A stretch of DNA of 36,081 nucleotides from Acidithiobacillus sp. (GTDB lineage: Bacteria; Pseudomonadota; Gammaproteobacteria; Acidithiobacillales; Acidithiobacillaceae): NCBI GenBank assembly GCA_028065135.1, contig JAPTWR010000096.1:1-36081 (forward strand). The letters run 5' to 3'. Below are positions 3,233-3,853 of the stretch, one piece after another. The first letter of the stretch is position 1; every line of letters begins with the position of its first letter. Under the pieces are notes generated by a model. That model saw only the letters and a program-made list of their open reading frames with translations, did no database searches and had not been told where the DNA came from. Made by a program: the position numbers and the translations under genes.

Positions 3233-3853
3233 CTAGCGCCAAAAGCTTACATAAAACCTTACCATATCTGCCGCCTCCACATGGTGGGGTACATCAGGCG
3301 GTATCCAGGCTGGACGTTCTGGGCTCAATGACCAGTTGCGTCCGCTGCCGTCATCCAGGCAGTAACGCAGTCGGCCCTCCAGGATCACGATGCGTCCCCA
3401 AACCCCAGCCTTGGTGTGATGATCGTGCAATAAACCGGCGGGTATATGCTCCCTATCGAATTCGGGTGTACGTTTGTATTCTTCCAAGGGTGCGCTTGGC
3501 TCCGGCAAAGCCGTCTCAGTAGAATGCTCGCCGGTAACCAGATAAATGCGCTTATCCCGCACCTTGCCCCACGTTTCGGCATCTGCCAGTGCCGGTTTTT
3601 TCTGGATGAGCACAGGCCATGTTTTAGCGAGCTGTGTATTGAGTTCCGGATACTCTTCCATGCCATTCGGCAGGTCCGCGTCCAGGTAAATTGCATCGAC
3701 CGGGCACTCGGCCACACATAAGGTGCAATCAATGCATTCCAGAGGATCTATGACCAAAAAATTGGGACCCTCATGGAAACAGTCTACTGGACACACCGTC
3801 ACACAGTCGGTGTACTTGCAGAGAATGCAGGATTCCGTCACTACATGCGTCAT
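3233..3853 (-). CDS. 7Fe ferredoxin fused to a DUF1971 (YeaR/TehB-like) cupin
   Basis: This is a two-domain protein of 206 residues. Residues 1-107 are a full FdxA-type 7Fe ferredoxin like Azotobacter FdI. C9, C17 and C50 are placed to bind a [3Fe-4S] cluster, C21, C40, C43 and C46 a [4Fe-4S] cluster, and the FdI-like C12 and C25 are also kept. A short linker leads to residues 126-206, a DUF1971 cupin with the hallmark THE-like segment HDHHTKAGVWGRIVILEGRLR, PPDVPHHVE and the terminal RFYVSFWR. H143, H145, H146, H190 and H191 are possible metal ligands. In enteric bacteria the DUF1971 gene yeaR is induced by nitrate and NO. The gene ends 75 bases from hcr in convergent orientation. GAGGAG precedes the ATG, which overlaps the previous small ORF by ATGA. 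The fusion is read directly, and an NO-stress role is inferred. Confidence 0.9.
   Translation of the reverse strand: MTHVVTESCILCKYTDCVTVCPVDCFHEGPNFLVIDPLECIDCTLCVAECPVDAIYLDADLPNGMEEYPELNTQLAKTWPVLIQKKPALADAETWGKVRDKRIYLVTGEHSTETALPEPSAPLEEYKRTPEFDREHIPAGLLHDHHTKAGVWGRIVILEGRLRYCLDDGSGRNWSLSPERPAWIPPDVPHHVEAADMVRFYVSFWR

What the first reader, a model, noticed from the sequence alone, without database searches (positions are those of the whole stretch)
3233..3853. 7Fe ferredoxin fused to a DUF1971/YeaR cupin next to hcp-hcr
Seen: one frame holds a complete Azotobacter FdI-type ferredoxin (all seven cluster Cys plus the two extra Cys) and a complete DUF1971 cupin. Known: DUF1971 yeaR responds to nitrate/NO in enterics, and Hcp-Hcr reduces NO. 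Inference: the fusion may be a self-contained redox partner plus sensor or catalytic cupin for nitrosative stress, perhaps an alternative electron donor to Hcp.
Basis: partly seen in the sequence, partly recalled or inferred. Interest (0 to 1): 0.75.

Follow-up and report, generated by a model that had tools for sequence, protein, structure and literature searches.

The report
Ferredoxin–cupin fusion in nitric-oxide clusters
In Acidithiobacillus, an electron-carrying ferredoxin is fused to a small cupin of the YeaR type, whose function is unknown, and the fused gene often sits among genes for nitrate breathing and nitric-oxide defence, so it may help show what YeaR-type proteins do.

Summary
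The fusion is real. ORF 3233-3853(-), 206 aa, joins a complete 7Fe ferredoxin (FdxA) to a complete DUF1971 cupin. Twelve full-length copies occur in 10 of 57 related genomes. The 21 sequences compared, some near-identical, are all 206 aa; where measurable, both halves evolve under constraint.

The nitrogen-oxide context is supported: 10 of 10 fusion genomes carry narG or hcp, against 6 of 19 others in the family. In relatives the fusion follows a hemerythrin gene and a b561-like membrane-protein stretch; in five loci this lies opposite nar genes with a DNR-like box between. hcp is within 5 kb of only 2 of 12 copies, plus plasmids.

In the window that operon is mostly deleted. In G003, and in one G014 locus, hcp and its reductase stay intact although the fusion is destroyed, which speaks against an obligatory Hcp donor. 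"Hcr" has MmoC-like, not Hcr, domain order.

The gene cluster has been in print since 1997; the fusion was not found in print. Best reading: redox subunit of a DNR-controlled NO-stress module. Partner and reaction are inferred.

The parts
3233..3853 (-). FdxA-DUF1971 fusion, 206 aa; residues 1-107 7Fe ferredoxin with DUF3470 tail, about 108-125 linker, about 126-206 DUF1971 cupin (H143, H145, H190)
3850..4152 (-). remnant ORF whose TGA overlaps the fusion's ATG: residues 8-77 match the start of a FIST_C-like protein, 77-98 its residues 254-275, last 11 residues the C-terminus of a b561-like membrane protein; read as two deletions
   Evidence: against L123
2129..3157 (+). Fer2-FAD-NAD reductase (MmoC/BenC-like), convergent with the fusion; probable Hcp reductase (inferred), not Hcr by domain order
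   Evidence: hcp-COG0543 operon of A. ferrooxidans in PMC1274295 (passage)
394..2070 (+). hcp, hybrid cluster protein, 558 aa
315..328 (+). perfect FNR/DNR-type box TTGATCGAGATCAA, 66 nt upstream of hcp; the only perfect match in the window (consensus recalled)
4059..4895 (-). nth, endonuclease III, upstream neighbour also in relatives L111, L123, L143

Best explanation
The protein is a soluble electron-transfer component of an anaerobic nitrogen-oxide/NO-stress module that is probably switched on by a DNR/FNR-type regulator. In relatives it follows a hemerythrin-like di-iron protein gene and a small b561-like membrane-protein stretch, often opposite nar genes. Proposed working: a reductase or the membrane protein loads electrons onto the 7Fe ferredoxin half, which passes them to the hemerythrin di-iron site (or to the cupin's own site) to reduce NO or to reverse nitrosylation, while the YeaR-type cupin half binds the small ligand or docks the partner. 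Shown here: the fusion, its distribution, gene order, boxes, constraint. Inferred: regulation, electron flow, partner and reaction. The window's copy is a derived state: the upstream partner genes and the box-bearing stretch are deleted and only hcp-reductase remains beside it.
For: Full-length fusion in 10 of 57 genomes, one length and all ferredoxin Cys in 21 of 21 sequences, dN/dS about 0.1 where measurable. narG within 5 kb of 6 of 12 copies; hcp within 5 kb of 2 of 12 copies, on plasmids p1 and pACF1, and on pTF5 (fusion broken in that record). Hemerythrin, b561-like stretch, fusion in that order in G009:C194, G009:C392, G014, G020, G022, G023; the membrane gene matches over nearly its whole length in one piece in L123, L122 and L031 only. 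HHE to fdxA adjacency in G018 and G021, whose FdxA groups with the fusion ferredoxins apart from the family's other paralogues, with moderate support (92/74, not starred). A separate HHE-DUF1971 fusion in G050, HHE followed by a DUF1971 gene in G676, DUF1971 to fdxA overlapping by ATGA in a Rhodanobacter MAG. Boxes with one mismatch at 5 of 5 HHE/nar divergent regions with a fusion, and before hcp in the 11 hcp loci scanned, 9 of them perfect (window and G001 near-identical; G009:C248 not scanned). DUF1971 beside Rrf2, truncated globin and hmpA on two alphaproteobacterial plasmids. E. coli yeaR 160-fold up in nitrate-treated cultures (PMC5320621, passages). Predicted HcpR regulons often hold ferredoxin- and hemerythrin-like genes (PMC1274295, passage).
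Against: The nearest genome, G001, has the fusion but no match to this hemerythrin at E 1e-15 and no narG, so neither is indispensable, or this copy is a relic. No box with up to 1 mismatch lies near the fusion in the window, and boxes with up to 2 mismatches are no commoner in the window than in shuffles (16 against 13.5). G005b has narG and the fusion but no such hemerythrin and no box between. In 40 other DUF1971 regions of the phylum no hemerythrin, FdxA, Hcp, NarG or NnrS was found by tblastn, globin or flavin reductase only in 4; among 11 class-level regions, five of them TehB, 1 had hemerythrin (G050) and none FdxA. FdxA was beside 0 of 30 hemerythrin loci and DUF1971 beside 2 of 30, within 1.5 kb. 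Four of 12 fusion copies have neither narG nor hcp in the stretch fetched (one on a 5.9-kb contig). yeaR-yoaG, tehAB, ytfE and hcp-hcr were each found not required for one anaerobic NO-scavenging activity of E. coli (PMC5320621, passage). No electron transfer was tested.
Confidence: 0.5

Rival explanations
1. Self-contained metalloenzyme: the cupin half binds a metal through H143, H145 and H190 and reduces NO or a nitroso compound with electrons from the tethered ferredoxin.
For: H143, H145 and H190 are invariant in 21 of 21 fusions; H143 has a His counterpart in only 1 of the 27 non-fusion DUF1971 sequences compared (alignment; counts). C165 is invariant in the fusions. Cupin fold match to TehB/YeaR.
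Against: Stand-alone DUF1971 proteins keep H145 (27 of 27) and H190 (26 of 27) but rarely a His at 143; no canonical cupin Glu ligand seen (motif recalled); H143 may be fixed by common descent of one clade; domain orientation unreliable (pTM 0.59). Metal was not testable here.
Confidence: 0.25
2. Alternative electron donor to Hcp.
For: Convergent next to hcp-reductase in the window and G001; about 2 kb from hcp in G009:C90 and on plasmids p1, pACF1 and pTF5. hcp forms operons with ferredoxin-like frdX in deltaproteobacteria and clostridia (PMC1274295, passages).
Against: 5 of 10 fusion genomes lack hcp; hcp-reductase survives loss of the fusion in G003 and at G014:C723, though G014 has another full fusion; in all 7 hcp genomes a 57-100% identical reductase is found, beside hcp; the fusion is not in the hcp operon.
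Confidence: 0.1
3. Sensor or sacrificial buffer: the NO-reactive cluster and cupin sense or scavenge NO rather than transfer electrons.
For: DNR-linked location in relatives; YeaR function unknown, and a yeaR deletion affects oxidative-stress resistance (PMC4959519, passages).
Against: No DNA-binding or output domain found; all ferredoxin Cys kept.
Confidence: 0.1
4. The window's copy is a relic without function in a decaying locus.
For: Two upstream deletions removed hemerythrin, most of the membrane protein and the box-bearing stretch; G003 and G014:C723 have lost the fusion itself.
Against: The frame is intact in window and G001 (3 nt differences), and against L123 dN/dS is 0.11 over 83 codons, though part of that time precedes the deletions; the start overlap with an upstream ORF is kept.
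Confidence: 0.2

Closest known systems
Azotobacter FdI / proteobacterial FdxA (7Fe ferredoxin)
   Different: Carries a C-terminal DUF1971 cupin; groups with hemerythrin-linked FdxA rather than the family's other FdxA (moderate support)
YeaR (P64488, 3bb6) and TehB N-terminal domain (3dl3, 3m70)
   Same: PF09313 and fold
   Different: No methyltransferase; fused behind ferredoxin; His at 143 and Cys at 165, rare in the other DUF1971 compared
pTF5 ferredoxin-FNR-prismane-NADH oxidoreductase genes (Dominy, Deane and Rawlings 1997; only the reference entry was seen, in PMC1274295)
   Same: Same gene set: fusion locus, Crp/Fnr, hcp, reductase, NnrS
   Different: The pTF5 record changes frame twice inside the fusion, so it is annotated as FdxA plus DUF1971; no Crp/Fnr gene lies between fusion and hcp in the window
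E. coli Hcp-Hcr
   Same: hcp next to a flavin reductase
   Different: Reductase has Fer2 first and misses the Hcr model

Membership tests
FdxA / 7Fe ferredoxin | curated model cut-off | tested here: met
   NF045490 144.4 bits, cut-off 135
FdxA / 7Fe ferredoxin | seven cluster Cys | tested here: met
   Cys 9, 17, 21, 40, 43, 46, 50 (plus 12, 25) invariant in 21 of 21; ligand roles recalled
FdxA / 7Fe ferredoxin | binds [3Fe-4S] and [4Fe-4S] | not testable with these tools
   needs EPR
DUF1971 (YeaR/TehB-N cupin) | Pfam gathering score | tested here: met
   PF09313 79.3 bits, cut-off 23.1, profile 1-80
DUF1971 (YeaR/TehB-N cupin) | cupin fold as in 3dl3 and 3bb6 | tested here: met
DUF1971 (YeaR/TehB-N cupin) | metal binding or catalysis | not testable with these tools
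   no assay; the passages seen give a yeaR phenotype but no biochemical function
TehB | methyltransferase domain behind DUF1971 | tested here: not met
   NF008992 32.6 bits, cut-off 303; protein ends after the cupin
Hcr (neighbour 2129-3157) | Hcr model cut-off; FAD-NAD-Fer2 order (recalled) | tested here: not met
   NF007964 73.3 bits, cut-off 383; Fer2 at 11-86, FAD 111-205, NAD 217-320
DNR/NO-regulated genes | DNR-type box upstream | tested here: inconclusive
   perfect box before the window's hcp; one-mismatch boxes before hemerythrin-fusion operons of 5 relatives; none near the window's fusion

The most novel reading that the evidence does not exclude
DUF1971/YeaR is a redox-dependent enzyme domain, and the fusion is a self-contained one-electron reductase for NO or nitroso/nitrosyl adducts: a 7Fe ferredoxin directly feeding a three-His cupin site, the same chemistry that stand-alone YeaR performs with a separate donor.
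Probability: 0.2. Interest if true: 0.75.

Novelty: new variant of a known kind. Interest (0 to 1): 0.5.

Why it matters
yeaR is among the genes most strongly raised in nitrate-treated E. coli CFT073 (160-fold; [quoted passage not shown] A natural fusion to a ferredoxin, and a second natural fusion to hemerythrin, suggest that the domain works in a redox/di-iron step, which can be tested with purified single-chain proteins. It also weakens the Hcp-donor idea and shows the wider module, part of which travels on pTF5-like plasmids.

Tried and rejected
Rejected: frameshift or assembly join (many copies, one length). Rejected: the fusion as part of the hcp operon (convergent here; elsewhere separated by a Crp/Fnr gene, or far away). 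Weakened: a general DUF1971-hemerythrin or DUF1971-FdxA link across Proteobacteria. The phylum search gave 52 rows in 44 of 398 genomes; I fetched 40 regions covering 42 rows and left out 10 (seven of TehB length, G001, G311, G587). None of the 40 had hemerythrin, FdxA, Hcp or NarG by tblastn; four had globin or flavin-reductase matches. The class search gave 15 of 185 genomes; 11 regions were fetched, G001 was already held, and three weak rows (G175, G143, G078) were left out.

The Pfam scan gave only sub-threshold hints for the membrane protein (Ni_hydr_CYTB, 14.7 bits, cut-off 30.1) and the FIST protein (FIST_C, 21.5 bits, cut-off 28.5); a NosP-like role for the latter is recalled and untested. 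The membrane gene matches only in part in L115 and L119 and in three pieces in L120 and L121, so it may be broken there. Fisher tests (nar p = 0.017; hcp p = 0.030; nar or hcp p = 0.0004) ignore phylogeny, and 'nar or hcp' was combined after seeing the data. Domain orientation in the model was not used (pTM 0.59). Paper searches for DUF1971 with ferredoxin (0 papers), DUF1971 alone (1 paper, listing only), pTF5/prismane/ferredoxin, Acidithiobacillus with nitrate reductase and hybrid cluster protein (0 papers), Acidithiobacillus with narGHJI (9 papers, listing only) and YeaR/TehB/NsrR/cupin (3 papers) showed no description of the fusion in their listings or in the passages read; no paper was read whole, and subscription papers, including Dominy 1997, were not seen. 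One search was spoilt because 'yeaR' reads as 'year'.

Full report
Observation. The minus-strand frame 3233-3853 encodes 206 aa: FdxA over 1-101 with the DUF3470 tail, then DUF1971 over 127-202, with NF045490, PF11953 and PF09313 above their curated cut-offs. All nine ferredoxin Cys are invariant in 21 of 21 fusion sequences, all 206 aa long, some of them near-identical. The predicted model (pLDDT 88.2, pTM 0.59) matches Azotobacter FdI and TehB/YeaR cupins. Non-synonymous change is low in both halves (p1 versus G025 copy: dN/dS 0.085 ferredoxin, 0.12 cupin; for the window's ferredoxin half against p1 and L031 synonymous sites are saturated).

Distribution. Of 57 related genomes 10 hold full-length fusions, 12 copies. 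Of the 120 proteins listed (2759 passed the threshold) 8 are full-length fusions, one identical to the window's; a search with the cupin half alone listed 24 proteins: 7 fusions, 15 DUF3565-DUF1971 and 2 others. On A. ferrooxidans plasmids p1 and pACF1 the frame is open; a third plasmid was only listed (NZ_CP082239); the pTF5 record changes frame twice within the region. G018 is Acidithiobacillus sulfuriphilus by its contig length, so the family is taken as Acidithiobacillaceae.

Neighbourhood. narG lies within 5 kb of 6 of 12 genome copies (G005b, G009:C392, G014, G020, G022, G023); hcp within 5 kb of 2 of 12 (G001, G009:C90) and on p1, pACF1 and pTF5; 4 of 12 have neither in the stretch fetched (G005a, G013, G015, G025; G025's contig is 5.9 kb). 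In G013 and G015 hcp lies about 469 and 175 kb away. Other recurrent neighbours are hemerythrin, a SLAC1/TehA-type channel, GST, and globin with a Fer2-FAD-NAD reductase and a Crp/Fnr regulator; on p1 and pACF1 also annotated NnrS. Within the 29 family genomes, narG or hcp occurs in 10 of 10 with the fusion and 6 of 19 without.

Upstream operon and its decay. In G009:C194, whose partial fusion (83 residues, contig end) is 96% identical to the window's, the order is nth, FIST-like, small ORF, hemerythrin, b561-like membrane protein, fusion. In the window the FIST gene is reduced to two pieces, joined to the last 11 residues of the membrane protein, directly before the fusion; G001 has the same spacing. 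In G003 the fusion and the hemerythrin are mostly deleted; at G014:C723 only the fusion's C-terminal end is left; both keep hcp and the reductase. G014 is a mixed assembly with another full fusion. G001 has no match to the hemerythrin at E 1e-15.

Regulation. A perfect TTGATN4ATCAA box (consensus recalled) lies 66 nt before hcp in the window, the only perfect one in 36 kb; matches with up to 2 mismatches are at chance level (16 against 13.5). In 27 stretches (465 kb) 12 perfect boxes were found against 0.44 expected from uniform base use: 9 before hcp, the others in L162-L164 near hemerythrin, Hdr-like or nar genes; the other two hcp loci scanned have a one-mismatch box, and G009:C248 was not scanned. 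The five hemerythrin-fusion operons opposite nar genes (L115, L119-L122) each have a one-mismatch box between; L120 and L121 are nearly the same sequence; G005b has none there. Rodionov et al. had predicted DNR control of hcp-COG0543 and of a globin operon in A. ferrooxidans (PMC1274295, passages).

Partners. The G050 protein joins hemerythrin to DUF1971 in one frame. In G676 a DUF1971 gene follows hemerythrin; these are 2 of 30 hemerythrin loci examined from 32 matching genomes among 274, and none of the 30 has FdxA within 1.5 kb. In a Rhodanobacter MAG DUF1971 and fdxA overlap by ATGA. In G018 and G021 fdxA directly follows hemerythrin without a cupin, and its sequence groups with the fusion ferredoxins (92/74, not starred) away from other family paralogues. 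On Sulfitobacter and Sphingomonas plasmids DUF1971 lies with Rrf2, truncated globin and hmpA. Against a general rule: 40 other DUF1971 regions in the phylum lacked these partners except globin or reductase in 4, and among 11 class-level regions only G050 had hemerythrin.

Mechanism. I commit to a redox subunit of an NO-stress module with hemerythrin as likeliest partner (0.5). A tethered three-His cupin reductase is the main rival (0.25); H143 is in 21 of 21 fusions and 1 of 27 other DUF1971 sequences, but common descent could explain this. The Hcp-donor idea is unlikely (0.1).

Novelty. The gene cluster is known (Dominy 1997, seen as a reference entry only; PMC10322971 passages describe the fnr-hcp-hcr-nnrS module of pTF5-like plasmids and fnr-hcp-hcr copies in ICEAfe2). 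The fused architecture and its hemerythrin operon were not found in the listings and passages seen.

Noticed in passing
window 51-124: A tRNA gene (71.3 bits) lies just upstream of the hcp promoter, a possible integration site for this mobile-type cargo.
   Followed up: no
L181 (pTF5) 3-608: The plasmid record reads the fusion in frame 1, then another frame, then frame 1 again, so it is annotated as FdxA plus DUF1971.
   Followed up: partly
L182 20881-21501 and L183 7667-8287: The listed gene covers only the DUF1971 half (20881-21210; 7667-7996) although the 206-codon fusion frame is open.
   Followed up: partly
L173 9268-10100: Hemerythrin-DUF1971 fusion protein in another gammaproteobacterial genome.
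   Followed up: partly
L182 15792-16082 and L183 2578-2868: Decayed fdxA directly behind a plasmid hemerythrin gene; the L182 copy shows stops and lost Cys.
   Followed up: partly
L120 3794-5399, L122 3465-5072, L182 11659-13162: Single-domain globin next to a Fer2-FAD-NAD reductase, like a split flavohemoglobin.
   Followed up: no
P0122-P0137 (except P0125): DUF3565-DUF1971 is the commonest other fused architecture seen (15 of 24 proteins).
   Followed up: no
L123 1677-2870: FIST_C-like protein (below cut-off) between nth and hemerythrin; the window keeps only fragments.
   Followed up: partly
L176 9616-16936: A stand-alone DUF1971 in G023 within 7 kb of Crp, globin, reductase and hemerythrin.
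   Followed up: no
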